Assembly: GCF_025960875.1 (NCBI RefSeq)
Contig: NZ_JAODLR010000006.1
Coordinates: 62,001-126,000 of the forward strand
Length of the DNA: 64,000 nucleotides
Reading direction: 5' to 3'
DNA from: Crystallibacter permensis
GTDB lineage: Bacteria; Actinomycetota; Actinomycetes; Actinomycetales; Micrococcaceae
This document shows positions 40,986 to 63,220 of the stretch, in pieces. Each line of letters starts with the position of its first letter. The first letter of the stretch is position 1. The translations under genes were made by a program, and so were the position numbers. The notes under the pieces are model-generated. The model was not told where the DNA came from, ran no database searches, and saw only the letters and a list, made by a program, of their open reading frames with translations.

Positions 40986-40999
40986 GCGCAACGACGCCC

Positions 41000-41165
41000 A
41001 GCTCGGATGTCATGGTCGGAGTGGGCGGTTTCGTGCACTACGGCGTGACCATGCAGGACGGTTCCGTATTGGATGCCGACGCGTTCCTCATGAAGAGCAG
41101 CGAGGTTCCTGCCGGGGCCGCTACAGCGGCAACCCTGCCCGGGAAATCGAGATTCCCCGCTGCCA
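41000..41165 (+). pseudogene. remnant of the C-terminus of a Pls/PosA-like (NRPS-type) protein
   Basis: The frame reads GGFVHYGVTMQDGSVLDADA then FLMKSSEVPAGA, a left-handed hexapeptide-repeat tail like that ending Pls/PosA-family NRPS-like enzymes. A one-base shift at about 41117 is needed to continue it into GRYSGNPAREIEIP, the expected next motif. Nothing else of that large enzyme is present. It is fused directly behind the aspartokinase wreck, which suggests deletion between two genes. Confidence 0.6.
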
Positions 41166-41264
41166 CCGGCGTATCGTGATCGCTCTGGAACCGGCCTTAC
41201 CGGGGTCAGCGTGTTCCGCGGCTTGTTTCGAATCGGCGCCAGTGGCGGCGTTGGCCTATTGTTG

Positions 41265-41682: not shown

Positions 41683-41711
41683 CAGGCCGGAAGCGTTACG
41701 CCTCCGGCCTG
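41683..41711 (+). terminator. hairpin downstream of the hypothetical gene
   Basis: CAGGCCGGA pairs with TCCGGCCTG; three more pairs continue past one A-C mismatch to a TTA loop. No T-run follows, so the terminator role is only likely. Confidence 0.5.
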
Positions 41712-42010
41712 AATCTGATTCGTGGAGGTAACTGTCAGAAAGTCGGTGTCTTCCTTGTCGTTGTCTTCCATATCTCGTCATCATAAGAATGACTCAGGAT
41801 CTTCCGCTACAGATGGCACCACAGAACTTAAGACCCACGTTCTCCTTCGCTCAGCGGTTCCCACATTTGTCTGTCAGCTAAGGCAAGGACCCGTTCTTGC
41901 CACTCCCGAACCGATAACCTGCAAGGACAACGCAACGGTCAATTGTTCAAATGCGCGATCCTTCTTCGCACAATTATGGTGGTAGCAGGAAACTACTCAG
42001 GAAGAGCTCC

Positions 42011-42283
42011 ATGGCCGTCGACTATCCGCTGGAACAGCTCAGCCCCGCTTTCGGAGCCGGGGCTGACGGAGGTCGCGAAGCCACATACGACGGAAAGGTC
42101 ACTTGGTCAGCAACAACTGGCTTCGGGTCCGACTCCTGGCATGGATATGTCGTCATTCAAGCCAAGCAGCGCCAGGAAAACGACACGGCGCGCGTCTCGA
42201 AACGCCGCCTGGCTTCGCGCTCAAACCCACTCAAAACGGGCTGTGGCCTGAATTGCCGGATCCTGCCCTTGCCTGGCCCCTGA
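42011..42283 (+). pseudogene. N-terminal remnant of a restriction/NTPase-type accessory protein
   Basis: Starting at ATG 42011 behind AGGAAGAG, the frame reads VDYPLEQLSPAFGAGADGGR then EATYDGKV and WHGYVVIQAKQRQ. The GAGxDGGREA plus W.GY..QAK pattern recalls nuclease-like N-terminal domains of defence NTPases and restriction proteins. After about residue 60 similarity ends and the frame becomes Arg/Ser-rich nonsense. It is too short to work. Family assignment is from memory of the pattern and uncertain. Confidence 0.35.
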
Positions 42284-42772
42284 CAACTGAAGCCTTGAAG
42301 GATCCTGAAGCGAACTCGACCTTTGAGCTCCTCTGCGGAAACCTTGGGCCGGATGAATGGCAGGCTACGGCGTTCCTCGCACGGGCCCTCTGGCCGTCCC
42401 TCACACGCCGTCCGGTAGGGGAAATACTGCAAGAGTTTTCCTAACTCTGCTGTCGTAAACGTTGTCCGGTCAGGGCGGAAGCCCAGCTGCTGAGGCCAGA
42501 TAAAGCGCAATGCCCGTCTGCAGCAGGAGTCGGCAGGCTTCTCGGCACGCCAGCACGGGCCGCACCGGACGAGTGCCGGCCCGGCTTCGATTTCAGAGCT
42601 GGACGCGCCGGAGGGGCTGGTTCGGTGACAAGGGAGCGTTGGAGTTTGGCTGCACTGCGACCCTTAAGGAAAGGGCTTCGATCGCGCGCCTGCGCACTCA
42701 CCGTATCGACTGACACCAATAGTCCGGTGAATCCACACGGTGGCCTGGATGGCCGCCGAAGGGACTTTACCC
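42284..42772 (+). other. intergenic stretch with an unidentified coding remnant
   Basis: About 490 bp without a whole gene. A frame in the + direction ending at 42444 reads protein-like from about 42205 (DPEANSTFELLCGNLGPDEW, then QATAFLARALWPSLTRR) and may be the tail of a lost gene; I cannot identify it. Nothing recognisable between 42445 and 42772. Confidence 0.3.
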
Positions 42773-42870
42773 CGTGAGATGACTCACAAGGCTGCAACCT
42801 AGACGCAACCTTCCCGTCCCTAGGCTAAGGACAACGGCCATCGCCCGCTCACAACAAGAGTGAACGATGC
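42773..42870 (+). repeat. 98-bp repeat, copy A (promoter region)
   Basis: From CGTGAGATGA to the ATG at 42868-42870 this copy matches 52721-52818 with roughly nine bases in ten identical, both on the + strand about 9.9 kb apart. Long identical blocks include TCCCTAGGCTAAGGACAACG and GAGTGAACGATG. It carries the TGCAACC-type promoter module (42793-42826). Behind the ATG the two copies differ completely; here only a 17-codon frame follows. Confidence 0.85.
42793..42826 (+). promoter_or_regulatory. C2-island promoter module, copy A
   Basis: TGCAACCTAGACGCAACC is a direct repeat of (T/C)GCAACC at 11-bp spacing; after 10 bases follows TAGGCT, a fair -10 hexamer. The same layout occurs upstream of the aldehyde dehydrogenase (50792-50825, minus) and at 52741-52774. 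It points towards adhP at 43156 but 330 bp away. Confidence 0.5.
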
Positions 42871-43155
42871 TCGTGCTTCGCACCGCAGACCACGACGGTC
42901 GGAGTGAGGTTCCACAATAGCGACACGGGCTAGAACGCTGACAGGTTATCCCTGGCTTGACGTTCCGTCCACCTCAATCGCCTACCCGGCCGATGAGGTG
43001 CCTCGGCAGCGGCTGTCCTCCGGCATCGGGCGTGAAACCCACCCATGATGCTGTGACCGACGGCTACTCAGCATCCAGCCCGGTTTCTTGCGTGCCGTTC
43101 CAATTCATGCCCGGCGCTCTCCGCTGCCGGCACTAACGACGAAGGAATATCGACA

Positions 43156-44175
43156 ATGACGACGATGCAAGCAGCAGTAGTAACCGAATTCGGCAAGGAT
43201 CTTCAGATCCAGGCCCTCCCCGTTCCCGTCCCCGGCCACGGGCAGGCCCTCGTCAAGGTACTCACCACAGGTGTTTGCCACACCGACCTGCACGCCGCCG
43301 AAGGGGACTGGCCGGTCAAGCCGACACCGCCGTTCATCCCCGGCCATGAGGGCGTCGGCGAGGTCGTTGCCCTCGGCGAGGGCGTCACAGACCTGGCCGT
43401 CGGTGACCTCGTGGGCAATGCGTGGCTCTGGTCCGCCTGCGGCGCCTGCCAGTACTGCCGCACCGGCTGGGAGACGCTGTGTGAAGCGCAGCAGAACGCC
43501 GGCTACAGTGTCGACGGTTCCTTCGGCGAATACATGCTGGTGGACAGCCGGTTCGCGGCCAGGATCCCGGCCGGCTCGGACCCCGTCGAAGTGGCCCCGG
43601 TGCTCTGCGCCGGAGTGACCGTCTACAAGGGACTGAAGATGACCGAGACCCGGCCCGGCCAATGGGTCACCATCTCGGGGATCGGCGGACTCGGGCACAT
43701 CGCCGTCCAGTACGCGGTGGCCATGGGCCTCCGCGTCGCCGCGGTAGACATCGCCGACGACAAGCTCGCCCTGGCTAAAAAACACGGAGCCGAGCTGACG
43801 GTCAATGCCCTGCACGAAGATCCCGCCGAAGTCATCCAGCGCGAAACCGGAGGTTGCCATGGAGTCCTGGTCACTGCTGTACACCCGTCAGCATTCGGGC
43901 AGGCGATCGGAATGGCCCGCCGCGGCGGCACCATCGTGTTCAACGGCCTGCCGCCGGGCGACTTCCCGGCACCCATCTTCGAGATTGTGCTCAAGGGCCT
44001 GACAGTCCGCGGTTCCATCGTGGGAACCCGGCAGGATCTCGAGGAAGCCCTGGACTTCTACGCCCAGGGCAAGATCCACCCGACAATCTCGACCCGGGAG
44101 CTGTCCGAAGTGAATGCTGTCCTCGACGAGATGAAGCACGCCAAGATCGACGGCCGCGTCGTTATCAAGTACTGA
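43156..44175 (+). CDS. adhP: zinc-dependent alcohol dehydrogenase AdhP
   Basis: A 339-residue medium-chain dehydrogenase of the AdhP/AdhA ethanol type. Catalytic zinc motifs: VCHTDLHAAEGDW and GHEGVGEV. Structural zinc: CGACQYCRTGWETLC. NAD-binding: GIGGLGHIAVQYA with Asp (VDIADDK) favouring NAD. It should oxidise ethanol to acetaldehyde. ATG 43156 follows GAAGGAA. It is 302 bp upstream of acs on the same strand; the gap 44176-44477 holds a GC-rich inverted repeat (GGCGGCGG/CCGCCGCC, 44193-44240) and no gene. Confidence 0.93.
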   Translation: MTTMQAAVVTEFGKDLQIQALPVPVPGHGQALVKVLTTGVCHTDLHAAEGDWPVKPTPPFIPGHEGVGEVVALGEGVTDLAVGDLVGNAWLWSACGACQYCRTGWETLCEAQQNAGYSVDGSFGEYMLVDSRFAARIPAGSDPVEVAPVLCAGVTVYKGLKMTETRPGQWVTISGIGGLGHIAVQYAVAMGLRVAAVDIADDKLALAKKHGAELTVNALHEDPAEVIQRETGGCHGVLVTAVHPSAFGQAIGMARRGGTIVFNGLPPGDFPAPIFEIVLKGLTVRGSIVGTRQDLEEALDFYAQGKIHPTISTRELSEVNAVLDEMKHAKIDGRVVIKY

Positions 44176-44477
44176 TCAGTCCCGCTGCCAGCGGCGGCGG
44201 AGTATCCCGGACAGCTTCGGTACCCCGCCGCCACAGGGCGCTGATGCCCAGCGAAGAAACCCAATAGTTCAAAGAACACCCAGGAGTCAGCCCGTGGGCG
44301 AGGTGCCGCAGACGGCGCCTCGCCGGCGGGAACTCTGGACGCCTTGCGGCTGCGAAGCCGTGCAATACGGCACCGGAACCGCCGACCAGACCCGCCAAGA
44401 GGCAGGAAGAACCAACCCGGGCCTATGACCGCGACGGCCGTCACCACAGAGCATCTTTAGAGGAAGAACAGTCATCC

Positions 44478-46502
<2,025 letters not shown>

Positions 46503-46543
46503 AGCATCTGCCCAATCCAGGACGACCTACACAGGAGGTAGTA

Positions 46544-46852
46544 GTGATCAAAAGACACGCTTCAGGTCCAGGAATGGTCTGCACGGGAGAGTGTGTTTGT
46601 CTGGCCGGAGCGGTCGTGGACGTCTATCTCCACGATGACTTTCACCGGCGGGGCACTGTCGAGGACGTCATGCCCGACTCTTCCGGCCTGTGGATCACCG
46701 GCCAGGGTCCTTGTTCCCGCGAGTTCGTCGACAAGGCGAGCGGATATACCGTGCGGACCGAACACTCGACACTGCTGAATCCTGCCGCTACGGCAGCGCC
46801 CGGAATGAAAGATCAGGAGATGTCCCAGACTGCCTTCGCCGCTTCAGCATGA
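46544..46852 (+). CDS. small unknown protein, family A (downstream of acs)
   Basis: A 102-residue protein starting at GTG 46544 with AGGAGG at 5 bp, 41 bp after acs, so likely in its operon. The core (residues 16-70: AGAVVDVYLHDDFHRRGTVE, GLWITG, SGYTVRT) looks like a small beta-barrel. It aligns with the product of 47851-48057 (LTGRQVQVHKNGRTIRTGYV, then EEAQGYTAL): shared L-x-G, V-x-V, R-x-G-x-V, G-x-L-x-I and GYT. So the two are paralogues within one island. I do not recognise the family. The N-terminus has two cysteines (CTGEC). Confidence 0.6.
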   Translation: MIKRHASGPGMVCTGECVCLAGAVVDVYLHDDFHRRGTVEDVMPDSSGLWITGQGPCSREFVDKASGYTVRTEHSTLLNPAATAAPGMKDQEMSQTAFAASA

Positions 46853-47039
46853 GGCCAGCTTGCAGGAACACCGGCAGGTTCTGTTCGCTTTTCGAGCGGG
46901 TGGGCGCCCCCGGCAGCCGTTCGTGGAAGCTGCGCGCCGACCTCGACCTTCTGTGGGTGTCGTCAAGCGTCCGGCGGTCAGGTGCGAGCGTGTTCGGACA
47001 ATCCCTCGCTTTGGCCCGTCGCCCGATGTAAGTCTGCCG

Positions 47040-47233
47040 CTACGCGCGCCGTTCGTGTGTTTGCCCGTAGGGGACATCGCCGCTGACGGCGACGGTATAG
47101 CTGGTGTAGCCGTGTTGGGTGACCAGGGTGCCGTGTGCCGTGGCGGCGTTCCGTCATGGCGTGTTCGCGGGCGGTTTCCACGGCAGTGTTCAGGTCGTTT
47201 TCGACGGTGTTCGGGTCGTGGGCGCTTGATCAT
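47040..47233 (-). pseudogene. frameshifted copy of small protein family B
   Basis: An ATG at 47233 with a perfect AAGGAGG site begins a frame broken by two shifts. Read across them it gives NDLNTAVETAREHAMTERRH then GTLVTQHGYTSYTVAVSGDV and PYGQTHER-stop. This aligns with the intact family B protein at 47627-47854 (ITTAVNRMIECALRQRAHG, ILVTRLGDGHFVVSLSDSV, PFGYTEQFD). Between 47234 and 47430 nothing else is recognisable. Confidence 0.6.
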
Positions 47234-47430
47234 CGTGGCCTCCTTCTCGATGGGATGTGCCTGGCCTCTCGGCGGGCACAGGCTTTTAGAGGACGGGCAG
47301 GCCCGGAGGGGCGGAAAGCGGTGGTTTGAGGGGGTGCAGGCATGCAGGACGAAGTCCGAAAAAGTCGGCTGTTTGGTGACGCGCGGCTGCCGCGGCACCC
47401 ATGGATCAGGCCGGAATTGGACGGCAACGG

Positions 47431-47530
47431 TAACGCCGGCCGTGACCGGCCTGGATTTCCTGCGCCGCCCGGTACGGTACGCGGCGTTGCCGGTGCCGTT
47501 GTCGGACCAGGCCGGGGCGCCGAGTGCCTA
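47431..47530 (-). pseudogene. aldehyde dehydrogenase remnant (C-terminal piece)
   Basis: Minus-strand frames read LGAPAWSDNGTGNAAYRTGR and, after a shift, EIQAGH, matching [20 protein letters not shown] of the intact enzyme at 49229-50752. DNA similarity to 49368-49470 is visible (for example GGCCGGCCTGGATCTCC versus GACCGGCCTGGATTTCC). The piece following in the protein order lies at 48205-48380, on the other side of the family A/B gene pair. Confidence 0.65.
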
Positions 47531-47626
47531 CAGGAGCCATTGGGCCTAGACAGGCCTCCTAATAGGAACTAATAGCAACGTCCAGGCCAGAATGGCTGGG
47601 AGCACGAAGATATTGTCCCCGGACCG

Positions 47627-47854
47627 TCAGGCGGAGTGGCGTCGGAAATCGAACTGTTCCGTATAGCCAAAGGGGACCGAATCGCTGAGGCTGACGACGA
47701 AGTGTCCGTCTCCGAGCCGTGTCACAAGGATGCCATGCGCCCGTTGCCGGAGCGCGCACTCAATCATCCGGTTGACCGCAGTGGTGATGCACTGGTCCAT
47801 GGACGCTCTGTTACGGACCTTGATTTCGATGGGTTTGACAGCTGGCATGTTCAT
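47627..47854 (-). CDS. small unknown protein, family B
   Basis: A 75-residue protein: SMDQCITTAVNRMIECALRQ, RAHGILVTRLGDGHFVVSLS, DSVPFGYTEQFDFRRHSA. A helix followed by beta strands is likely. It starts inside the stop of the family A gene (ATGA overlap at 47851-47854), so they are coupled. A frameshifted second copy lies at 47040-47233. I do not recognise the family; pairing with A and repeated occurrence in one island argue for a shared function. Confidence 0.6.
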   Translation of the reverse strand: MNMPAVKPIEIKVRNRASMDQCITTAVNRMIECALRQRAHGILVTRLGDGHFVVSLSDSVPFGYTEQFDFRRHSA

Positions 47855-48057
47855 CGAGCTCGTGCGGAGCCTGGTAGGGCCGTATACCCTTGCGCCTCTT
47901 CATATAAGGCTCGAGGTTCGGTGCCGCAGGCTTCAATCCTGAGAACGCCTGCAGAAACGGCTACCTCCTTCACATACCCGGTCCGGATAGTTCGCCCATT
48001 TTTGTGAACCTGAACCTGCCGGCCGGTCAAGTTCTTCCGTTCTCCGCAGTGTCCCAT
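47851..48057 (-). CDS. small unknown protein, family A (second copy)
   Basis: A 68-residue protein: GHCGERKNLTGRQVQVHKNG, RTIRTGYVKEVAVSAGVLRI, ALYEEAQGYTALP. ATG 48057 has AAAGG at 10 bp; an upstream GTG (48084) is weaker. Paralogue of the protein at 46544-46852. It is the first gene of an A-B pair that lies inside a broken aldehyde dehydrogenase copy. Confidence 0.58.
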   Translation of the reverse strand: MGHCGERKNLTGRQVQVHKNGRTIRTGYVKEVAVSAGVLRIEACGTEPRALYEEAQGYTALPGSARAR

Positions 48058-48204
48058 GACGTTGCCTTTCGTATCGCAATTCACTGTCTTGCTTATGTCT
48101 GGAGCTCAGAGCCCCGGAATCCTCAACCACCGGTCGACTTCAACTATCTAACTGTTGCCAGCGGGCATGGTGTGATCAAGCTACGCCAAATTGGGAGACA
48201 CGCC

Positions 48205-48380
48205 CTAGCTGACGGCGTCATGCTGATCGCTGAACCCTGCTACCGGGACCACGACCACGAGGCCGAAGATTTCCTCCTGGAAGATGCGCATCCTGTTGTG
48301 GCCTTCAACAATGATCTGGTGGACGCAGAAGCCGCCGGCGAAGACCGGGGCGCCCCAGCCTGGAAGGACGGCCGTGGACA
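48205..48380 (-). pseudogene. aldehyde dehydrogenase remnant (middle piece)
   Basis: The minus strand reads [20 protein letters not shown] then VPVAGFSDQHDAVS-stop, clearly related to [20 protein letters not shown] of the intact enzyme. The stop is at 48205-48207. In the intact protein the next residues are about those of the remnant at 47431-47530, so one gene copy was split by about 670 bp that hold the A/B pair. Between 48058 and 48204 nothing else is recognisable. Confidence 0.75.
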
Positions 48381-48495
48381 CTGATTCTTCTCGATTCGAT
48401 TACCCTTAGGATCCTTGTTTTGAAGAACCGGGGCTGTTCAGGAAGTCTGTGGCCGGTGCACGCTGGGGCGACGGAAGCACGCGCCACGGGGGTAG

Positions 48496-48537
48496 TCGAG
48501 CCTGCCGGATTCCGCTGGTGGTTTCCGACAGGCTCGA
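48496..48537. repeat. REP-like inverted repeat
   Basis: TCGAGCCTGCCGGA pairs with TCCGACAGGCTCGA (one mismatch) around a 14-base loop. It has the TCGAGCCTGTCG core of the short palindromic repeats scattered through Arthrobacter-type genomes. It lies between adk and the remnants and may end the adk transcript. A single arm with the same core (GGTAGTCGAGCCT) recurs near 52970. Confidence 0.65.
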
Positions 48538-48575
48538 TCACCGTTGCAGGATCACCGGTGCAAGCGGCGGAAGTA

Positions 48576-49172
48576 CTATCGTCCGTTTCCGGCAGAGACC
48601 TTGAGGAGATCTTCGAGGATGCTCATCACTCTGTCCGTGACCTCGCCGATCCCGCCGATCCCGTCAACACTGGCCAGGATTCCGCGGGCTGCGTAGCTGG
48701 CCACCACGGCTTCGGTCTGCTCGTGGTAGAGATCCAGGCGGTGGCGGATGACAGCTTCGTTGTCATCGCTGCGCCCGGTCTCCTGGGCACGACCCAGAAG
48801 GCGGGCCACGAGTTCCTCGTTGTCGGCCGTGAGCTGCAGGACGACGTCGAGCTCGTTATACTTGCCGGCGATGATGTAGTCCAGGTAATCGACCTGGGCG
48901 GTAGTGCGCGGGTATCCGTCGAGGAGGAAACCGTCCTGAACGTCGGCTTCGCTGAGGCGGTCCCGGACCATTTTGTTGGTCACGCTGTCCGGAACGAAGT
49001 CCCCGGCGTCCAGGTACTTCTTGGCTTCGATTCCTAGCGGGGTCTGGCCTTTGACGTTGGCACGGAAGATGTCGCCGGTGGAGATCGCGGCCACGCCGAG
49101 GCGCTCCGAGATCCGTTCCGCCTGCGTTCCCTTGCCCGAACCTGGAGGTCCGATAATCAACATTCTCGTCAT
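48576..49172 (-). CDS. adk: adenylate kinase, probable second copy
   Basis: A 198-residue adenylate kinase with P-loop GPPGSGKGT (8-16), AISTGDIFRANV, LLDGYPRTTAQ and a short LID as in other actinobacterial enzymes. It converts AMP + ATP to 2 ADP. The housekeeping adk normally lies after secY in the ribosomal protein cluster, which is not here, so this is probably an extra copy. It sits 56 bp downstream of the aldehyde dehydrogenase, probably in one operon, where it could recycle AMP made by acetyl-CoA synthetase. Confidence 0.92.
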   Translation of the reverse strand: MTRMLIIGPPGSGKGTQAERISERLGVAAISTGDIFRANVKGQTPLGIEAKKYLDAGDFVPDSVTNKMVRDRLSEADVQDGFLLDGYPRTTAQVDYLDYIIAGKYNELDVVLQLTADNEELVARLLGRAQETGRSDDNEAVIRHRLDLYHEQTEAVVASYAARGILASVDGIGGIGEVTDRVMSILEDLLKVSAGNGR

Positions 49173-49228
49173 TCAAAAGCCCTTCGTGGTGCCTGTTTGT
49201 TGAACGCTTGCGGTGGTCCCGACCGGGC

Positions 49229-50752
49229 TTAGAAGAAGCCGAGTTTGTTTTCGGAGTGGCTGACAAGGAGGTTCTTGGTCTGCTGGTAGTGGTCCAGCAT
49301 CATGGAGTGGTTTTCACGTCCGATGCCGGAGGACTTGTAGCCCCCGAACGCCGCCCCGGCCGGGTAGGCGTGGTAGTTGTTGACCCAGACCCGGCCGGCC
49401 TGGATCTCCCGTCCCGCGCGGTAGGCCACGTTGCCGTTGCGGGACCAAACGCCCGCGCCGAGACCGTAGAGCGTATCGTTGGCGATGCCCATGGCGTCGT
49501 TGTAGTCGCTGAACTTTGCCACGGAGACCACCGGGCCGAAGATCTCCTCCTGGAAGATCCGCATCCTGTTGTGGCCCTCGAAGACGGTGGGCTGGACGTA
49601 GTAGCCGCCGGCGAGATCGCCTTCCAGCTGGGCCCGGGCGCCGCCGGTGAGCAGCTTGGCGCCTTCCTGCACTCCGATGTCGATGTAAGAGAGGATCTTT
49701 TCGAGCTGGTCGTTAGAGGCCTGGGCGCCGATCTGGGTGTCAGTGTCCAGCGGGTTGCCCTGGATCATCTTCTCCACCCGGGCCACGGCGTCGGCCATGA
49801 AGGAGTCGTAGATGTTCTCCTGGACCAGGGCCCGGGACGGGCAGGTGCAGACTTCGCCCTGGTTGAAGGCGAAGAGGGCGAAGCCCTCCAGCGCCTTGTC
49901 GTAGAACGCGTCGTTGGACTCCGCGACGTCGGAGAAGAAGATGTTCGGGCTCTTGCCGCCGAGTTCCAGCGTGACCGGAATCAAGTTCTGGCTGGCGTAC
50001 TGGCTGATCAGCCGGCCGGTGCTGGTTTCGCCGGTGAAGGCGATCTTGCGGATCCGCGGGCTGGACGCCAGCGGCTTGCCGGCCTCGACGCCGAAGCCGT
50101 TGACCACGTTGAGGACGCCGGCGGGCAGCAGGTCGCCGATGAGTTCCATCAGAACCAAGATCGACGCCGGCGTCTGCTCAGCCGGCTTAAGGACGACGGC
50201 GTTGCCCGCCGCCAGGGCGGGGGCGAGCTTCCAGACGGCCATCAGGATCGGGAAGTTCCAGGGGATGATCTGGCCCACGACGCCGAGCGGCTCGTGGTAG
50301 TGGTAGGCGGTGGTGTCCTCGTCGAGCTGGGACAGCCGGCCCTCCTGAGCCCGGACCGCGGAGGCGAAGTACCGGAAGTGGTCCGCGGCGAGCGGGATGT
50401 CCGCGTTGAGCGTCTCGCGGATGGGCTTGCCGTTGTCCCAGGACTCGGCCACGGCCAGCAGTTCGAGGTTCGCGTCGATCCTGTCGGCGATCCTGTTCAG
50501 GACCGCGGCCCGTTCGGCGACGGAGGTCCTGCCCCACGACGGCGCGACCTTGTGGGCGGCATCCAGCGCCAGCTCGATGTCCTCAGCGGTGCTGCGGGCC
50601 ACCTCACAGAAGGCCTTGCCAGTCACGGGGGTGATGTTCTGGAAGTACCGGCCCTTGACCGGGGCGACCCACTCGCCGCCGATCCAGTTCTCGTAGCGGT
50701 CCTTGAACGTGACCTTCGAACCCTCAGTACCGGGCTGGGCATAAACAGTCAT
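49229..50752 (-). CDS. acetaldehyde dehydrogenase (NAD-dependent aldehyde dehydrogenase, ExaC/AcoD type)
   Basis: A 507-residue aldehyde dehydrogenase. Catalytic Cys302 in [11 protein letters not shown], general base Glu in LELGGKSPN, and [13 protein letters not shown] for the NAD site. The N-terminus ([20 protein letters not shown]) and the C-terminus ([15 protein letters not shown]) are those of ExaC/AcoD enzymes that oxidise acetaldehyde. Upstream lies a promoter module shared with two other sites in the island, and the divergent GAF regulator. Downstream adk follows. Remnants of a second copy lie at 47431 and 48205. Confidence 0.94.
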
Positions 50753-50791
50753 AGTAACTCCTCTGGATAACAGACGTCTTCTTCTGGCCCC

Positions 50792-50825
50792 ATGCTAGAA
50801 CTTCAAAGGTTGCGACCAGGCTGCA
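50792..50825 (-). promoter_or_regulatory. C2-island promoter module of the aldehyde dehydrogenase
   Basis: On the minus strand: TGCAGCCTGGTCGCAACC, then 10 bases, then TAGCAT. The layout equals that of copies at 42793 and 52741. The hexamer TAGCAT lies about 40 bp upstream of the start codon, a normal -10 position; the CGCAACC repeat would occupy the -35 zone, as for a class II activator site. Confidence 0.6.
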
Positions 50826-51339
50826 ACGGGGATCCGCCAGTTGCTGACCAGCCCCCGATGGGACGCTTCTGGTCCCGATGCATCTGCACAGAGAAAGCAC
50901 CGGACCAGAACATCCTGAATCAAGGGGAACGGCTCGATCCCGATTCCCGTCATCAGGAAGTGGCTGATTGAAAACCCTGGTACGGCATCCTTCCATGCAC
51001 CATCACGGCGGCCATCAGCTGGTGTGCGCCAGATTCAGGAGTCCTCCGGTGGCGTGTGATGAGGCCGTAGATTGAAGGGGCATTCGCGGCCGGGGAGCTA
51101 ATGGACCGCGGAAGAACTGTTTGCGCTGGCGTCCGGAGCCAGCGCCTACCGGACCAAACCATTGTGGCTCAGACGGCTGCTGGATTTAGTCAGTCACCTC
51201 TAACCGACGATGGAAACCGTCGGGATGGCGGGGGTACGCAAATATTCCGCTAACCTGAACGATGCAACCTGCAAGAGGCCGGTATGCTTGTGATTGGGGC
51301 CACACCTGCCCCTTTCCTCCTGTCGACTATGGAGCCACC
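50826..51339. other. divergent intergenic region with a hairpin and a possible remnant
   Basis: About 510 bp between the aldehyde dehydrogenase and the GAF regulator. It contains a perfect 8-bp hairpin GCGCTGGC / GCCAGCGC (51123-51145). Around it a + strand frame reads EELFALASGASAYRTKPLWL then RRLLDLVSHL-stop (ends near 51201), which looks like the tail of a lost protein that I cannot identify. No whole gene is seen. Confidence 0.4.
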
Positions 51340-52725
51340 GTGCCTAATTCCCGGCCGCTGTTGCCCAGCCTGTCTCCCAGCGTCGCGGCGACGACAATTG
51401 TTCCCGTTACCCTGCCTTTCCCGGCGTCGAAGCAGCTTGGTGTCAGTTCCGGGCAACGGGCCCTTCGCAGCATCATTGAGGAGTCCTGGCAGCGTTCGTT
51501 GCGTCTGCAGGCCGACCCCGATATGCCCCCGTCTGCGCTGACGCTCGACGGCGAGGCACTTAAGGAGTACCGCCGGGGCCACCCCTTAGCGTCCATCATG
51601 CCGGTGATCCATAAACTGCTGATTCAGCCCGGTTCCGAACAAGGGCTGCTCGTCGCTGTCGGGGATGAACTGGGCCGGCTCCTGTGGGTCGATGGCGATA
51701 CTGCCCTGCGCCGGCGTGCCGAGCGCATGCTGTTCGTTGAGGGTGCGGACTGGTCCGAGGCCAGCGTCGGCACGAGCGCACCCGGGACCGCCCTGGCGCT
51801 GGGCCGCAGCGTCCAGGTCGCCGGTGCCGAGCATTTCAACCGGGCTGTTCACCCGTGGAGCTGCACGGCGGTGCCCTTCCATGATCCGGACACAGGGGCC
51901 GTGATCGGAGTCCTGGACATTACCGGCACGGAGATGGCGGTCGCCCCGCATACCCTGACCCTCGTTGAGGCCACCGTGGCGGCCGCGCAGGCGCAACTGC
52001 GGGTGGAGCGGCTTCAGTTGGCCGCCACGCAGCGGGACCGGCCCGCGGATCGGCGCATGCCGGCTGCGGCTGCCGGACACAAAACCATCCACCGGACCAG
52101 CAGCCCGGTCCAGAGTCTGTATCGCAACAGCCTGCGGTTGCTCGGCCGGGACCACGCTCTGCTTAGCATTGAAGGCAGGACGGTATCGCTGTCTCCAAGG
52201 CACAGTGAGTTGCTTGCCCTGCTGAGCATCCATCCGGATGGCCTCAGCGCTGAGGAACTGTGCAGCCTACTCTTCGGGGAAGTTCCGGCCATGACGCTTC
52301 GGGCGGAGATGGTCCGGTTGAGGAAAGTCCTTCAGCAGTTCAATCCTGCCGCCGTGCCGGAATCCCGCCCCTACAGGCTCACCGTGGACGTCCGGTCGGA
52401 CGCTGGCCAGGTTCTCAGCTGCCTCCAGCGCGGGGCACACCGGCTCGCCCTGGAAATTTATCGCGGTCCGGTGTTGCCGCACTCCGAGGCTCCAGGTGTG
52501 GTAAAGCTCCGGAGGCGCGTCTCCACACTCCTTCGGGAGGCCCTATTAACGGACGGCAGCGCGGAAGCCCTGCTTCAGTACGCGGAACTTCCTGAAGCGA
52601 GCGATGACGTGGCTGTTCGGATGGCGGCGCTGAAACGACTGCCGCCCCGCTCACCCAAGAGGGCTGCGGTGGTTGCTGATCTGGAGCGTCTGGAATCCGA
52701 ACTCGGAACACACCAACGTCCGTGA
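51340..52725 (+). CDS. GAF-domain transcriptional regulator (AcoR-like sensor, winged-helix C-terminus)
   Basis: A 461-residue protein. The N-terminal two thirds resemble the sensor part of AcoR-type activators: IIEESWQRSLRLQADPD, then a GAF domain (GLLVAVGDELGRLLWVDGD, WSEASVGTSAPGTALALGRS, HPWSCTAVPFHDPDTGAVIG). There is no sigma-54 AAA+ domain; instead a winged helix of the OmpR type follows (TVSLSPRHSELLALLSIHPD, LRAEMVRLRKVLQQF). Divergent from the aldehyde dehydrogenase, it is the likely activator binding the TGCAACC-type modules. Start GTG 51340 has GGAG at 5 bp. Confidence 0.82.
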   Translation: MPNSRPLLPSLSPSVAATTIVPVTLPFPASKQLGVSSGQRALRSIIEESWQRSLRLQADPDMPPSALTLDGEALKEYRRGHPLASIMPVIHKLLIQPGSEQGLLVAVGDELGRLLWVDGDTALRRRAERMLFVEGADWSEASVGTSAPGTALALGRSVQVAGAEHFNRAVHPWSCTAVPFHDPDTGAVIGVLDITGTEMAVAPHTLTLVEATVAAAQAQLRVERLQLAATQRDRPADRRMPAAAAGHKTIHRTSSPVQSLYRNSLRLLGRDHALLSIEGRTVSLSPRHSELLALLSIHPDGLSAEELCSLLFGEVPAMTLRAEMVRLRKVLQQFNPAAVPESRPYRLTVDVRSDAGQVLSCLQRGAHRLALEIYRGPVLPHSEAPGVVKLRRRVSTLLREALLTDGSAEALLQYAELPEASDDVAVRMAALKRLPPRSPKRAAVVADLERLESELGTHQRP

Positions 52726-52818
52726 GATGACCCGCAAGGCTGCAACCTCGGTGCAACCCTCCCGTCCCTAGGCTAAGGACAACGGCCATCGCCCCGCTCA
52801 CACCAAGAGTGAACGATG
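52721..52818 (+). repeat. 98-bp repeat, copy B (promoter region)
   Basis: Second copy of the repeat at 42773-42870. Its first bases overlap the stop codon of the GAF regulator. It ends with the ATG (52816-52818) of a malate synthase tail fragment. Both copies share the promoter module and the conserved run up to the start codon. Confidence 0.85.
52741..52774 (+). promoter_or_regulatory. C2-island promoter module, copy B
   Basis: TGCAACCTCGGTGCAACC, then 10 bases, then TAGGCT: the same direct repeat and -10 as the other two modules. It would start a transcript about 35 bases before the ATG at 52816. Confidence 0.5.
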
Positions 52819-52941
52819 CCCGTCGCCGACGCCCGCGACATCTTCGAGGAGGTCACCCTTGACCCTAGGCTCCCGGCCTTCCTGACAGTTCCCGCCTACG
52901 ACCGGTTCCTGTACCAGGGCTGGAAGGGATCCGGTCGCTGA
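52816..52941 (+). pseudogene. malate synthase C-terminal fragment behind a promoter copy
   Basis: A 41-codon frame: VADARDIFEEVTLDPRLPAF then LTVPAYDRFLYQGW. The pattern ARxIFEEV...FLT(L/V)PAY is the extreme C-terminus of malate synthase A (AceB). The rest of the enzyme is missing, and the fragment is joined exactly to the start codon of the duplicated promoter region. It suggests that a glyoxylate-cycle gene once stood in this C2 island. Confidence 0.65.
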
Positions 52942-53360
52942 GCCCGTGCTTATGGAAACCTGATCCTCGGTAGTCGAGCCTCTCGAGATTTCTGTCGCCG
53001 GGTTGCTACGCCCTCCGCGGGACGGGCGGCCGACGACGGCTTGAGCCGTAATCCCGTCATAAACCGGCCCTTCCCGCTTTCGGGTCAAGCGCAAAACGCG
53101 AAGGATGACGACGGTAATCGGGGACAGAGGGAACTCAAGCAGATAACCTCCGATCCATCGTCAGGCCCCACGAGCGAGTCAAGAGCGCTTTGTCAGGCTC
53201 TTTGTGAATTCCACCCGCTCGACTTTAGGCACATCGGGCCTGACGCTTTACTACTATTCCGCCAACACTTACGGTGGCGGCGTCCTGCTTCAGAAAGTAC
53301 CCCCTGGTAGATCTCGGTGTCCGACGGCACGACGCCAGCGAGCGAGAAAAGAGACATTTC
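52942..53360. other. intergenic, no gene seen
   Basis: About 420 bp. Only a partial REP-like arm (GGTAGTCGAGCCTCTCGAG, 52969-52987) is recognisable. Nothing else supports a gene on either strand. Confidence 0.5.
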
Positions 53361-54677
53361 ATGACCACCTGGCGGATCAGGGATTTTCATTCGGCCGACC
53401 TTGACGGGATCCTGCACCTCTGGGAATCCCTCAAGGCCACCAACATCGAGCCGGTCTACGCCCTTTCCGAGGTGCTCGCCTCCTGCGAGAAGGACCACGC
53501 CGTCGTCGCGGTGCAGGGCGAGACGGTGGTGGGAGCCGCCATCGGACGCGCCGCGCATGACCAGGGCTGGATCGTCTTTCTGGCTACGCTTCCGGAGTTC
53601 CGGGGCCGCGGGATCGGCACCTCGCTGCTGGCCGCGGTCGAAAACCGGATGGCCCCGCACGGGCTCGACAAGCTCTCCGCGCTGATGCCCGAGGCCGAAA
53701 CCCGGGTGGAAGCCTTCCTGGGCCGCGGCTTCGTGCTCAAAAAGAACCTGCGCTACTTCGAGCGCAGGATCCCCGTCCAGCGCCAGGAGCTCGGCGCGCT
53801 GGGCCAGCTCGGCGGCCGCATCCTGGCCCGGGACCTCTGGGAAAACGTCGCCGGCATGCGCAAGGAGAAGGAACTGCTGGAACGGCGCCTGGTCCTGCCG
53901 CTGGCCGAGGCCGACCTCGCCGACGAATACGGCGTGGTGCCCCCACGCGCCGTCGTCCTCTTCGGCCCTCCCGGCACCGGAAAGACGACCTTCGCGAAGG
54001 CGATCGCCTCCCGGCTGGAGTGGCCGTTCGTGGAGGTTTTCCCGTCCCGGCTGGCCTCGGACCCGAAGGGGCTGGCCGGCGCGCTGCGCGAGACCTTCCT
54101 GGAGATCGCCGAGCTGGAGCACGCCGTCGTGTTCATCGACGAGGTGGAGGAAATCGCCTCCCAGCGGTCGGGCGAACCGCCGTCGCCGCTGCAGGGCGTC
54201 ACCAACGAACTGCTCAAGATCATCCCGGCCTTCCGCGAACAGCCCGGCCGGCTGCTCGTCTGCGCCACCAACTTCATCCGCGCCCTGGACACCGCGTTCC
54301 TGCGCCACGGCCGGTTCGACTACGTCATCCCCATCGGACTGCCCGACCGCCAGGCCCGCGAGGCCATGTGGCAGCGCTTCATCCCCGCCGCGGTCGTGGA
54401 CGAGGTGGACGTGGAGCTGCTGGTGGACCGAACCAAGGGCTTCTCCCCGGCGGACATCGAGTACGCGGCCCGGAGCGCCTCCCAGCGGGCGCTGGAAAAG
54501 GCGGTGTACGACGACGGCGGGCTGGCTTCCGGCGGCGACCTCGCCGTCCGCGCCGCGGTCCGGAAGGGCCCGGCCACCCAAGATTACCTCGACGCGATCG
54601 GGGACACCCGGACCACGGTCAGCGACGAGGTCCACGAGCAGTTCCTTGAGGACATCGACGCGCTGGGCCGGGTATAA
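53361..54677 (+). CDS. GNAT acetyltransferase - AAA+ ATPase fusion protein
   Basis: A 438-residue two-domain protein. Residues 1-140 are a GNAT N-acetyltransferase fold with the acetyl-CoA motif PEFRGRGIGTSLLAAVE. From about 165 follows an AAA+ domain: Walker A FGPPGTGKTT (about 201-210), Walker B VVFIDEVEEI (about 254-263), sensor 1 LLVCATNFI, arginine-finger region FLRHGRFDYVIP and sensor 2 region FSPADIEYAARSAS. The AAA+ part is of the classical SpoVK/FtsH-like clade. ATG 53361 has only a weak ribosome binding site. In this C2 island it might acetylate and remodel Acs or the dehydrogenases; this is inference. Confidence 0.8.
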   Translation: MTTWRIRDFHSADLDGILHLWESLKATNIEPVYALSEVLASCEKDHAVVAVQGETVVGAAIGRAAHDQGWIVFLATLPEFRGRGIGTSLLAAVENRMAPHGLDKLSALMPEAETRVEAFLGRGFVLKKNLRYFERRIPVQRQELGALGQLGGRILARDLWENVAGMRKEKELLERRLVLPLAEADLADEYGVVPPRAVVLFGPPGTGKTTFAKAIASRLEWPFVEVFPSRLASDPKGLAGALRETFLEIAELEHAVVFIDEVEEIASQRSGEPPSPLQGVTNELLKIIPAFREQPGRLLVCATNFIRALDTAFLRHGRFDYVIPIGLPDRQAREAMWQRFIPAAVVDEVDVELLVDRTKGFSPADIEYAARSASQRALEKAVYDDGGLASGGDLAVRAAVRKGPATQDYLDAIGDTRTTVSDEVHEQFLEDIDALGRV

Positions 54678-55261
54678 GGCTGATCTTGCAGGGGCTTCGC
54701 TAATTGTTACGTGGCAGATGAATTCCCCTCTGCGGCCATGTTAACGGGCTGGCTTGTCAATTTGTCGAGTATCCGACGCGAGGCCTCGGCACGCCCGGTA
54801 ACGATCGTCATCGTACGCAATCCAACAATGGCTTATCGCTACTTTAACGCGCAGTGGTCCCGCCCCCATCTCGGCGGGGTCCCGCGCTGGCTAGGCTAGG
54901 TCCAGCGAGTCGAAGTCCTCGTCGACCCGGATCGGGTTGTGGAGGTTCAGCACCGTGGAGCCGGCGCTCCGTTTGATGGTATTTGTCAGTACGGCGATCG
55001 TGGCAATCCTCACGGCGGGGACAAGACGTCAAACTCCTCGTGTTGCTAATTAATCGCCATGGCTGGCTAACAGCGCCCAAACCCGGCAGATACAGGCCAC
55101 CTCGGCGCTCGGCAAAACCTTAGCGTTGGATATTTCACTTTTCACGAGCCATCCCATCCAGGCAATGGCACGATGCCGGTCTCCAGCCGCTGCGACTGGC
55201 TTTGCGGTCATAAACACTCAGGATCCTCTCTTGTTCGACACGCGATTCCTGAGGAGGTCGA
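54678..55261. other. intergenic with a short unidentified coding tail
   Basis: About 580 bp without a whole gene. On the minus strand a frame ending at a stop at 54891-54893 reads RSAGSTVLNLHNPIRVDEDF then DSLDLA, a plausible C-terminus of a lost protein (about 54891-55010). I cannot name it. The remainder shows nothing on either strand. Confidence 0.35.
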
Positions 55262-55708
55262 TCAAGGCCTGCCCGGACGCTCCTTCGCAAGTTCGATGAC
55301 CCATTGCGGGGTCTCGCGGCCCAGTCGCTTATCGAGTTCGCAGCGCAATCGTGCTGCCTCGATCTTGACCCTCTTCTCCGCAGCCGCTTGCTGGACAGGA
55401 GTCCGTCGGCGTTGACGCCGAGTTGTCTCTTCACGTCGGTCCGGGTCGGCAGAACTGGTCCCGGCAGCCGGGTCGAAGTCACTACGACTTGGCTTTGGAA
55501 GCTCGGCGTCTGACAGGGCCGCGATGAGGTCATAGTCCTCAACCATGTAGCCATCGCCGACATTCAGACGGCGCTGCAGATTAGTGACGTATTGAAAGAA
55601 GCGCTGATCCGATCCGGTGCGTTTCCAATCAGCGGCGATCAGCCCGAGGAGCAGGTCGATGCGGTCTCTTGGCCGTTCCGGTAGACCAGCGAATAGATCC
55701 TCCGTCAT
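55262..55708 (-). CDS. hypothetical protein (last gene of an unknown operon)
   Basis: A 148-residue soluble protein. The N-terminal half (RPRDRIDLLLGLIAADWKRT, GSDQRFFQYVTNLQR, YMVEDYDLIAAL) resembles the small DUF1040-type helical proteins with an R..W...PD.R..Q..xNL...EDxxL pattern. The C-terminal half is highly charged and may be a coiled coil (QQAAAEKRVKIEAARLRCEL). AGGAAGGAAG precedes ATG 55708. It follows the HicB-like gene by 2 bp. Confidence 0.6.
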   Translation of the reverse strand: MTEDLFAGLPERPRDRIDLLLGLIAADWKRTGSDQRFFQYVTNLQRRLNVGDGYMVEDYDLIAALSDAELPKPSRSDFDPAAGTSSADPDRREETTRRQRRRTPVQQAAAEKRVKIEAARLRCELDKRLGRETPQWVIELAKERPGRP

Positions 55709-55710
55709 GC

Positions 55711-56025
55711 CTACTTCCTTCCTGTTTCAAGCCAGAGACGGATGTCCTTCTCACACTCGTCTGCTGCAGGGACCGGCGACCGCCACGCGCCTTTCCACTT
55801 GCTTTTGACAGGCCAGTGTGGCCGGTACATACGCCAGCTCTCACCATGGACCTTCAGCGCGACGAGAAAATCCTCCGGCATCGCGCCGCAGAGGATCTCG
55901 TACTCAGCGGCCAAAGCGTCAACAATTCCATTCAGCCTTCGGGTCCGAACCGACAGGCCAGGAACCTCCGGCACGTCAGCAATCCACCAGACGCCGGACT
56001 TATGCACCCGCGCGGTCAGTTCCAT
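55711..56025 (-). CDS. HicB-like small protein
   Basis: A 104-residue protein. The first 50 residues (ARVHKSGVWWIADVPEVPGL, RRLNGIVDALAAEYEIL) fit the HicB antitoxin fold: W-W-x(3)-VPE-x-PG followed by a helix with leucines. The C-terminal part (YRPHWPVKSKWKGAWRSPV) is basic and aromatic. No HicA toxin partner (small, GSH motif) is seen next to it, so a classical toxin-antitoxin role is unproven. It lies 7 bp after the 205-residue gene. Confidence 0.55.
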   Translation of the reverse strand: MELTARVHKSGVWWIADVPEVPGLSVRTRRLNGIVDALAAEYEILCGAMPEDFLVALKVHGESWRMYRPHWPVKSKWKGAWRSPVPAADECEKDIRLWLETGRK

Positions 56026-56032
56026 CGGAGCT

Positions 56033-56650
56033 TCACGTCTCCTCGATTCTCGTAATTGCGGTTACGGGCGTAGTAGCCCGGAAAGTTGGAATACCGTCTT
56101 CCCGCACGTCGACGAGTAGTGCACCAGGCCGGCCGAGCTGGAGTCGATATATCGATAGCAGCCTCAAAGCTTCCCCGTCTCTCCTCAGGCCATCGGCGGG
56201 AATCCGACTGAAATCTCCGTACGGGACTTCATGGCCTGGCAAACGGGTCATAGTCCGATTGCCATGCGTAAGGTCGAAGACGTAGAGCGTCCCAGAGGCG
56301 GTGCACACCCGCCAGCGGCCCTCCTCGCGGTCAGTCAGCCGGTCCGTCAGTTCAACCATGGTCAGCAGGGCTTGACGATGCGCCGCATCACCCATCCCGT
56401 CCAGGTCCTCGACGGTGTCCACGCGGATACTGGCACCCGGCAGGATCCGCTCCAGCGCGGACCGCAACAGCTGGCGCGCTCTTTCCCCGACCGTCCTTGC
56501 CGAGCGTGACTGCACGAGCAGATGCACTTCGACGGGCTCCTCGGCAAGCCCAGTAGACGAGCCGGGAACGACCCAAACCCTGTCGATGCCCACCACCCGT
56601 GCCTCGCGGAGAACAGCTCCCAGGTGCTCCCCGCTCCCCTCCAGCATCAT
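56033..56650 (-). CDS. hypothetical protein of an unknown operon
   Basis: A 205-residue protein. The N-terminal 75 residues (VVGIDRVWVVPGSSTGLAEE, PVEVHLLVQSRSARTVGERA, GASIRVDTVEDLDG) have the strand order of MNT-like nucleotidyltransferases, but the GSxxxGxxxxxSDxD catalytic pattern is degenerate (PGSSTGLAEEPVEV). The C-terminal half has TLYVFDLTHGNRTMTRLPG. AAGGA precedes ATG 56650. The start overlaps a possible upstream gene by 4 bp. Function unknown. Confidence 0.6.
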   Translation of the reverse strand: MMLEGSGEHLGAVLREARVVGIDRVWVVPGSSTGLAEEPVEVHLLVQSRSARTVGERARQLLRSALERILPGASIRVDTVEDLDGMGDAAHRQALLTMVELTDRLTDREEGRWRVCTASGTLYVFDLTHGNRTMTRLPGHEVPYGDFSRIPADGLRRDGEALRLLSIYRLQLGRPGALLVDVREDGIPTFRATTPVTAITRIEET

Positions 56651-56862
56651 TCAGTTCCTTTGCATAGCCGAGTACCGCTTAGTGCCGTCGTTCCTATCCA
56701 AGAGATATTCCCCAGGTGCCGCGTGGCACTTTTCCCGGCTTCGGTCCAACGCGCATCTTTATTGAGATGAGCGTTCTCCGGCGCACACTCTAGGAACTGC
56801 TGAAGGTCGCGGGCACTAGCGGATCCGGCGAGGTCGACGAAGACATGAGTAAGGACGGTCAA
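56647..56862 (-). CDS. possible small protein at the head of the unknown operon
   Basis: A 71-codon frame from TTG 56862 (LTHVFVDLAGSASARDLQQF, RWTEAGKSATRHLGNI) whose TGA overlaps the next ATG as ATGA. GAGGGCGGG lies upstream of the TTG. Composition is less convincing than the following genes. It could be a real leader gene or a truncated remnant. The stretch 56863-57079 further upstream shows no gene. Confidence 0.3.
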   Translation of the reverse strand: MTVLTHVFVDLAGSASARDLQQFLECAPENAHLNKDARWTEAGKSATRHLGNISWIGTTALSGTRLCKGTE

Positions 56863-57079
56863 GATTAACCCGCCCTCGACACTAGTGCCGGTGCCCTCTG
56901 AAATTCAATGCCTCTACCGGCAGAACAAGCGCCGGTTACCAGTCTCAGGTCGAGAGTACAGATCACGCCACGGGCCCTCGGAGTCTGTTGACTCTACTTC
57001 GTTGCAGGGCTTTCCTCTCGCGCCGGCAGGGAGGGCCACGAAGACCCGTCAGGGGGCAACTACGAAACAACGGTGGGAG

Positions 57080-57511
57080 TCAATAGCGGTGCCGTTTCTG
57101 GCGGCGCATGGGAACCGCGCCGTCCGATTCGGTGCTCGGGTTGTCCGCCAGGTAGTGCGCGAAGAGCGTCATGGCGTAGCGGTCGAGCTGTCGGTTGAGT
57201 TCGCCGACCTGCTGCTTGAGTTCGGCGATCCGCTGTTTGTCTTGATGCTTTTCCTCCGCAGCGGGGCTTCGCCGACCGGTTCCGAGCGGGGCGATGAGTT
57301 GGTTGAATTTCTCGTTGAGCCGGTATGGGTTGTCCGGCTCGTGAGCGTCCTGCCGGAATGCCCGGGCCACGGCGTCATGGCCGAGTCCGCTGAGGATTTC
57401 GATCTGCCGTTTCGTCCGCGGCGCGTTTCTATCGGTGGAGAGCACCTCGATTGCACCGGATACACGGGTCATCACGTCATCGGAGACGCGCTTGCGCTTC
57501 GCGGGCATCAT
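57080..57511 (-). CDS. TnpC-like/DUF6262-type accessory protein of the recombinase trio
   Basis: A 143-residue protein: RTKRQIEILSGLGHDAVARA near the N-terminus looks like a helix-turn-helix, and KHQDKQRIAELKQQVGELNR is a coiled coil. This combination is that of the small proteins (TnpC of Tn554, DUF6262) encoded behind large tyrosine recombinases. It overlaps the recombinase gene by 4 bp (ATGA). Likely a DNA-binding helper for transposition. Confidence 0.75.
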   Translation of the reverse strand: MMPAKRKRVSDDVMTRVSGAIEVLSTDRNAPRTKRQIEILSGLGHDAVARAFRQDAHEPDNPYRLNEKFNQLIAPLGTGRRSPAAEEKHQDKQRIAELKQQVGELNRQLDRYAMTLFAHYLADNPSTESDGAVPMRRQKRHRY

Positions 57512-62739: not shown

Positions 62740-62853
62740 TGCTGCCTCCCCTCGATGGCCCCGATGACTAACCGGTGGCACCTCTCGTGTGGAAGACACT
62801 AACAGACCGCCTGCGATACAGGGAGTGAGAAGACACTTCCTGAATCTCATCCG

Positions 62854-63220
62854 TGGAGATGGGGGGAATTGAACCCCCGTCCGATGTTGCGTTGCCAGGA
62901 CTTCTCCGGGCGCAGTTTGCTTCGGGATTTCTCGGCCCCAGCCATCCTGCAAACAAGTGGCTGACCCGGGCCCAGCCGTCTAAAAGTCCCGGACACTCCA
63001 ACGGCGAAAGTGTCCAGCAGTGGCCCTCTAAATGACGCCAGAAACCGGGTCGAGAGCGTACCCGGGCTGACGGACTATGCCCGCTGCTTAGGCAGCGAGA
63101 GCGAAGTCGTGCTGTTTAGAATCAGCAGTTATTTTTTTGCAGAGAGCGTTAACGAGATAGCCCTGCATCCTCGGCCCGCTTCTCCTGGCGCGACTAACAT
63201 CGTCGAAACCTGTCATCCCC
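62854..63220 (-). ncRNA. ssrA: transfer-messenger RNA (tmRNA)
   Basis: About 367 nt. The 5' end GGGGATGACAGGTTTCGACG and the 3' end CATCTCC-A form the tRNA-like acceptor stem; the T arm GGGGGTTCAATTCCCCCC is complete. CCA is not encoded. The tag frame lies at 63126-63088: GCT GAT TCT ... GCC TAA gives ADSKQHDFALAA, close to the mycobacterial ADSHQRDYALAA. It rescues stalled ribosomes together with SmpB, encoded just upstream at 63638. Confidence 0.93.

What the first reader, a model, noticed from the sequence alone, without database searches (positions are those of the whole stretch)
42773..54677. C2-metabolism island that pairs Acs with its own adenylate kinase and a GNAT-AAA+ fusion
Seen: adhP, acs, acetaldehyde dehydrogenase, adk, a GAF regulator and a GNAT-AAA+ protein within 12 kb. 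Known: Acs yields AMP, which only adenylate kinase returns to the ADP pool; Acs is shut off by GNAT acetylation of the lysine in its SGK motif (K636 here). Inference: the island is a self-contained ethanol-to-acetyl-CoA unit with its own AMP recycling and possibly its own post-translational control.
Basis: partly seen in the sequence, partly recalled or inferred. Interest (0 to 1): 0.75.

Follow-up and report, generated by a model that had tools for sequence, protein, structure and literature searches.

The report
Mobile ethanol-use cassette with private adenylate kinase
A 21-kb inserted DNA island in a soil actinobacterium carries genes for turning ethanol into acetyl-CoA together with its own spare adenylate kinase, and spare adenylate kinases beside AMP-making enzymes turn up on several other plasmids and islands, which suggests that such pathways tend to bring their own AMP recycler.

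Summary
The six genes are real. They are cargo of a 21.1-kb element (41728-62852) inserted at the tmRNA 3' end; relatives G001, G003 and G004 carry the empty site. The adk is a second copy: the housekeeping adk lies in secY-adk-map. Acs is also an extra copy. Arthrobacter sp. ISL-5 has the same collinear array plus glyoxylate-shunt genes: exaC-adk facing acs-aceB-aceA-adhP. The window lost aceA/aceB but keeps an aceB scrap upstream of GNAT-AAA+. Beyond the finding: accessory adks recur beside AMP-forming CoA ligases. At score cut-off 300 a ligase lies within 6 kb in 11 of 19 plasmid adk entries and 7 of 40 accessory entries of the family, against 0 of 144 control entries, but also in 0 of 22 entries not flagged housekeeping elsewhere in the phylum. 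Cut-off 100 gives 12 of 144 controls. The adk tree scatters the paired adks over several branches. Best reading: a mobile catabolic module with private AMP recycling. Control of Acs by GNAT-AAA+ is not supported: 0 of 20 other genomic copies lie near C2 genes. All six genes together were seen nowhere else.

The parts
41728..62852 (.). inserted element carrying the C2 cassette (21,125 bp)
   Evidence: window 41727 and 62853 are joined in relatives G003 and G004 with a 6-base overlap; G001 also lacks the stretch; the more distant G009 lacks it too, with a less exact left edge
41708..41727 (.). left copy of a 20-bp direct repeat (18 of 20 identical) ending in the 6-bp GTGGAG
62839..62858 (.). right copy of the direct repeat; its last 6 bp are the end of the tmRNA gene
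43156..44175 (+). adhP, zinc alcohol dehydrogenase (start could be 43165)
   Evidence: NCBIfam AdhP above cut-off; 96% identical over residues 27-339 to the ISL-5 copy
44478..46502 (+). acs, AMP-forming acetate-CoA ligase, extra copy
   Evidence: TIGR02188 above cut-off; chromosomal paralogues at 82% and 54% identity
48211..48342 (-). aldehyde dehydrogenase (exaC-like) fragment; the surrounding DNA aligns with ISL-5
   Evidence: tblastn 64% over 44 residues; collinear with L187
48576..49172 (-). adk2, accessory adenylate kinase, 198 aa
   Evidence: second copy in the genome; tree partner of the ISL-5 and Soil736 exaC-adk copies, support 100/99
49229..50752 (-). exaC, acetaldehyde dehydrogenase, 56 bp upstream of adk2 on the same strand
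   Evidence: NCBIfam AcaldDHExaC above cut-off; exaC-adk neighbours also in L051, L070, L186, L187, L188
51262..52725 (+). GAF-domain putative regulator, divergent from exaC
   Evidence: PF01590 and a partial DhaR-like N-terminus below its cut-off
52828..52911 (+). remnant of aceB (malate synthase), residues 508-535
   Evidence: tblastn 71% over 28 aa, E 3e-07 in a 21-kb search; DNA match to L003 and L187
53361..54677 (+). GNAT-AAA+ protein, 438 aa
57080..57511 (-). small ORF (143 aa) behind the recombinase-like genes
   Evidence: no family match
57508..59556 (-). 682-aa recombinase-like ORF (assignment by my reading of motifs, recalled)
   Evidence: no Pfam or NCBIfam match
59543..61255 (-). 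570-aa ORF of the same array
   Evidence: no Pfam match; NCBIfam only a chance-level hit; weak matches in 14 plasmid records, one of them annotated as a site-specific integrase
61252..62952 (-). 566-aa tyrosine recombinase (start uncertain, may be near 62730)
   Evidence: NCBIfam XerC E 8.6e-13, below cut-off; Pfam Phage_integrase E 5e-4, below cut-off
62853..63220 (-). tmRNA gene, the insertion site
   Evidence: ARAGORN

Best explanation
A mobile catabolic module for ethanol and acetaldehyde that brings its own AMP recycling. AdhP oxidises ethanol to acetaldehyde, ExaC oxidises that to acetate, and the extra Acs activates acetate to acetyl-CoA, giving AMP and pyrophosphate. The accessory adenylate kinase behind exaC turns AMP plus ATP into two ADP. 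The housekeeping adk is tied to ribosomal genes, so a separate copy expressed with the pathway would keep AMP from building up when C2 flux is high and growth is slow. Shown: gene content, second-copy status, insertion at the tmRNA, the collinear relative in ISL-5, and recurrence of the adk-ligase pairing elsewhere. Inferred: substrate, co-expression of exaC and adk, and the recycling role.
For: Second adk; the housekeeping one is in secY-adk-map. Extra acs. Empty site in relatives. ISL-5 carries exaC-adk facing acs-aceB-aceA-adhP, with adk 90%, exaC 88% and acs 87% identical. The module genes are under purifying selection by Ka/Ks. Accessory adks lie within 6 kb of an AMP-forming ligase in 11 of 19 plasmid entries and 7 of 40 family entries, against 0 of 144 controls, at cut-off 300. 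Seven of the 19 plasmid adks are directly next to the ligase gene: acs on pAD51, pADNL1, a Prescottella plasmid, two pRi plasmids and pRL10, and malonyl-CoA synthase on a Microvirga plasmid. The paired adks sit on several tree branches.
Against: In the window adk2 is next to exaC, not acs; acs is 2.1 kb away on the other strand. Five exaC-adk loci were found outside the window and only ISL-5 showed acs in the stretch held. 33 of 40 family entries, 8 of 19 plasmid entries and 22 of 22 phylum entries have no ligase within 6 kb at cut-off 300. Three acs-bearing plasmid loci have no adk in the stretch read. The ligase model was built partly from these same loci, and at cut-off 100 it rings in 12 of 144 controls. 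Adk2 has a higher Ka/Ks against ISL-5 (0.05/0.156) than exaC (0.075/0.601) or acs (0.069/0.541). The scan found no sigma-70-like promoter in 42700-55000. No expression data.
Confidence: 0.65

Rival explanations
1. Adk2 is a passenger: Arthrobacter-type genomes often duplicate adk, and one copy happened to land behind exaC in a mobile module and is only slowly decaying.
For: 20 of 295 family genomes show more than one adk match, 16 of them in one genus, g9, in many contexts without ligases. Adk2 nests among g9 housekeeping adks and has a raised Ka/Ks. One exaC-linked copy is split (L070).
Against: Adk2 is intact with conserved motifs and under purifying selection against ISL-5, Soil736 and MDT3-9. 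The exaC-adk neighbourhood recurs in six loci including the window. Pairing with ligases exceeds controls, also in another phylum. In G216 the housekeeping adk is split as well (L076), so the L070 break may be an assembly error.
Confidence: 0.22
2. One reading: a six-gene unit in which GNAT-AAA+ also switches Acs off by acetylating K636.
For: K636 lies in the SGK motif. GNAT-AAA+ follows aceB on pAD51 and pADNL1, and an aceB scrap precedes it here.
Against: 0 of 20 other genomic GNAT-AAA+ loci and 0 of 3 further ones in ISL-5, Soil736 and MDT3-9 have C2 genes nearby. Five annotated plasmid copies lie beside unrelated genes. No hit to a named protein acetyltransferase family of Acs among the best 25 of 26 listed.
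Confidence: 0.05
3. Adk2 serves another reaction, for example balancing adenylates for the aldehyde dehydrogenase or a lost neighbouring enzyme rather than Acs.
For: It is adjacent to exaC, not acs. Other accessory adks sit in ligase-free contexts such as arginine-deiminase genes or electron-transfer-flavoprotein genes.
Against: ExaC needs NAD only (established knowledge). In ISL-5 acs faces adk directly.
Confidence: 0.08

Closest known systems
C2 array of Arthrobacter sp. ISL-5, contig NZ_JAGGPM010000053.1 (L187)
   Same: exaC-adk facing acs, then adhP, collinear with the window; adk 90% identical
   Different: keeps aceB-aceA between acs and adhP; no GAF or GNAT-AAA+ in the 16.6 kb held; no recombinase genes seen there
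Atrazine-type plasmids pAD51 and pADNL1 (L003, L013, L014)
   Same: exaC, acs with adk directly behind, aceA-aceB-GNAT-AAA+
   Different: adk of another branch (60% identical), adds DUF779, amine oxidase and ethanolamine permease; adk behind acs rather than exaC
acs-adk gene pair on Rhizobium rhizogenes pRi plasmids and R. johnstonii pRL10 (L135, L143, L144)
   Same: adenylate kinase gene directly behind acs
   Different: other phylum, distant adk branch, other neighbours
Adenylate kinase coupled to AMP-forming Acs in Syntrophus aciditrophicus (PMC4992975, passages seen)
   Same: adenylate kinase activity interconverts the AMP handled by an AMP-forming Acs
   Different: Acs runs in the ATP-forming direction; the passages I saw do not describe a gene pairing

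Membership tests
short-type bacterial adenylate kinase | family score above curated cut-off with P-loop and DGYPR motifs | tested here: met
   PRK00279.1-3 238 bits vs 187; motifs
housekeeping adk of the ribosomal operon | adjacent to secY and map | tested here: not met
   adk2 lies behind exaC; the other adk of the genome is in secY-adk-map
AMP-forming acetate-CoA ligase (Acs) | TIGR02188 cut-off and SGK motif | tested here: met
ExaC acetaldehyde dehydrogenase | NF050026 equivalog cut-off | tested here: met
   955 bits vs 900
integrative element at tmRNA | empty site in relatives with short repeat at both ends | tested here: met
Tn554-like three-recombinase element | two tyrosine recombinases plus a small third protein (recalled) | tested here: inconclusive
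   only the 566-aa ORF matches recombinase families, below cut-offs; the others have no match
GNAT acetyltransferase of Acs (Pat/AcuA type) | acetylates the SGK lysine of Acs | not testable with these tools
   needs biochemistry; neighbourhood evidence is negative
adk paired with AMP-forming CoA ligase (pattern proposed here) | ligase gene within 6 kb | tested here: met
   acs at 2.1 kb, opposite strand; pattern counts

The most novel reading that the evidence does not exclude
Mobile catabolic modules repeatedly recruit a private adenylate kinase to recycle the AMP of their CoA ligase. The recruits come from different adk branches in Actinomycetota and Alphaproteobacteria and sit with acetate, propionate, malonate, anthranilate and salicylate-type activation genes, so an orphan adk on a plasmid could be used to predict an AMP-forming pathway nearby.
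Probability: 0.5. Interest if true: 0.7.

Novelty: new variant of a known kind. Interest (0 to 1): 0.6.

Why it matters
Adenylate kinase is usually treated as a single-copy housekeeping gene. If mobile pathways bring their own copy, AMP removal would be a limiting step when an AMP-forming pathway enters a new host. That is directly testable, and useful both for annotating plasmids and for building ethanol, acetate or aromatic-acid pathways in new hosts. In the nine paper searches I made I saw no description of this gene pairing; the library lacks most subscription journals. The main text of the Rue61a genome paper has 0 occurrences of 'adenylate kinase', although its plasmid carries an unannotated adk 4.4 kb from a ligase whose activity that paper confirms.

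Tried and rejected
Att site by exact repeat of 16 bases or more around the tmRNA: none in the window, only weak matches elsewhere in the genome; solved instead by comparing relatives. GNAT-AAA+ as a conserved C2 partner: rejected. Full six-gene co-occurrence: not seen. A general phylum-wide adk-ligase rule: not supported, 0 of 22 at cut-off 300 and 1 of 22 (L167) at cut-off 100; I read 40 of the 54 adk places in 22 genomes (not fetched: all 7 of G306, one of G319, and the pairs of G506, G526 and G538), and some of the 22 may be housekeeping copies whose secY my single-sequence model missed. Rows and biases in the pairing count: the 144 controls are 20 random windows, 20 genomic and 5 plasmid GNAT-AAA+ sites and 99 housekeeping adks; 3 housekeeping loci were counted twice and one split gene gave two entries. 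The 40 family entries hold one split gene counted twice (L070). The 19 plasmid entries include the identical pAD51/pADNL1 pair and are 19 of 208 records, picked by me from the best 60 rows for annotation and diversity. The ligase model was built from 13 ligases, most of them from these loci; Pfam AMP-binding was confirmed separately for ten loci, and a Pfam search gives about one AMP-binding match per 313 kb in 20 genomes (my sum), i.e. about 4% per 12.6 kb. L070 and L076 were left out of the tree. Two 50-kb control stretches of plasmids showed no ligase by annotation or model. Structure prediction and fold searches were not used.
Full report
What is there. The six genes reported are present and complete by family scores. 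The adk (48576-49172, minus strand) is a second copy: a search of the own genome finds two, and the other lies between secY and map. The two are 76% identical. The acs is also extra: the genome has a copy at 82% identity and another at 54%. In the genus, adk2 was found in 1 of 10 genomes.

It is cargo of an inserted element. In relatives G003 and G004, DNA matching window 41727 continues directly into DNA matching 62853, the 3' end of the tmRNA gene, with a 6-base overlap; G001 lacks the stretch as well, and so does the more distant G009 with a less exact left edge. The element is 21,125 bp with an 18-of-20 direct repeat at its two ends. Behind the tmRNA end lies an array of three large ORFs and a small one; only the first matches tyrosine recombinases, below the curated cut-offs. 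I call the element integrative on the empty site; the recombinase type is open.

Ancestral form of the cassette. Arthrobacter sp. ISL-5 (L187) carries exaC and adk facing acs, aceB, aceA and adhP. DNA alignment is collinear over exaC-adk, the intergenic region, acs and adhP; the window lacks the aceB-aceA stretch between acs and adhP. An 84-bp aceB scrap lies at 52828-52911, about 450 bp before GNAT-AAA+, and on plasmids pAD51 and pADNL1 aceB is followed by GNAT-AAA+. So the island probably once held the glyoxylate shunt too (inference). The exaC-adk neighbourhood was found in five loci besides the window: L051, L070 (adk split), L186, L187 and L188. In the tree adk2 joins ISL-5 and Soil736 with support 100/99 and nests, with weaker support, among housekeeping adks of another genus (g9) rather than next to its host's own.

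The wider pattern. 20 of 295 genomes of the family show more than one adk match at E 1e-50. Among their extra copies some close catabolic arrays: a ligase, cupin and maleylpyruvate-isomerase array resembling salicylate/gentisate degradation (L052, L053), an anthranilate-type array (L060) and a methylcitrate array with a divergent ligase (L062). On annotated plasmids an adk follows acs on pAD51, pADNL1, a Prescottella plasmid, two pRi plasmids and pRL10 and malonyl-CoA synthase in Microvirga. It closes the salicylate-type array of pASPHE301, lies behind prp genes on pTC2 with prpE 5.2 kb away, sits 4.4 kb from the anthranilate ligase of pAL1, where it is unannotated, and follows gabD 3.1 kb from an adenylate-forming enzyme on pEL101-243.

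Counts. At score 300 a ligase lies within 6 kb in 11 of 19 plasmid entries, 7 of 40 accessory family entries, 0 of 22 entries not flagged housekeeping elsewhere in the phylum, and 0 of 144 controls. At score 100 the figures are 11 of 19, 8 of 40, 1 of 22 and 12 of 144; 11 of those 12 are housekeeping adks with a weak homologue nearby, two of them the same locus. Plasmid misses: L129, L133, L136, L138, L139, L140, L141, L145. So the pairing is a tendency of plasmid and catabolic-array copies, not a rule for all extra adks. The entries are not independent: the seven family hits are four contexts (this module twice, the salicylate-type array three times, anthranilate, propionate). Three plasmid acs loci have no adk in the stretch read.

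Mechanism. AMP-forming ligases yield AMP, which adenylate kinase returns to ADP (established knowledge; the reaction coupling is also used in the assays of PMC7746861, passage seen). The housekeeping adk is tied to ribosomal genes; a copy tied to the catabolic genes would follow pathway demand. That adk2 does this is inferred.

GNAT-AAA+. It is a widespread gene: 85 of 295 family genomes and 14 of 32 genera, with full-length relatives in 21 plasmid records. 0 of 20 other genomic loci had C2 genes within 5 kb, nor did 3 more. Acs control by it is therefore only a conjecture; the sole C2 link is the aceB neighbourhood.

Verdict.

Noticed in passing
window 40157-41179 (+): Remnants of an aspartokinase-like gene in the host flank: AA_kinase and ACT domains in different frames.
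   Followed up: no
L132:9001-9558 (plasmid pAL1): An adenylate kinase ORF without annotation, 4.4 kb from the anthranilate-CoA ligase gene.
   Followed up: partly
L070 and L076 (genome G216): Both the exaC-linked adk and the secY-adk-map adk are split in this genome, which points to assembly indels or to reliance on another copy.
   Followed up: no
window 48576-49172 against L187: Synonymous divergence of adk (0.156) is far below that of the flanking exaC (0.60) and acs (0.54) in the same pair of loci; codon bias or gene conversion could explain it.
   Followed up: no
L138, L139, L140: Accessory adks in ligase-free contexts on rhizobial plasmids: between a DMSP-lyase-family gene and a thioesterase, and behind arginine-deiminase pathway genes.
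   Followed up: no
L068, L069, L071, L073, L074, L077-L079: A conserved extra adk (54-57% identical to adk2) beside an ANTAR/GAF protein, an epimerase and (in most) a subtilase in genus g9, with no ligase nearby.
   Followed up: no
G007:C93:133481-133849 and G001:C1: G007 has a second tmRNA-like match at 84%; G001 shows the same tmRNA match near both ends of one contig, perhaps overlapping contig ends.
   Followed up: no
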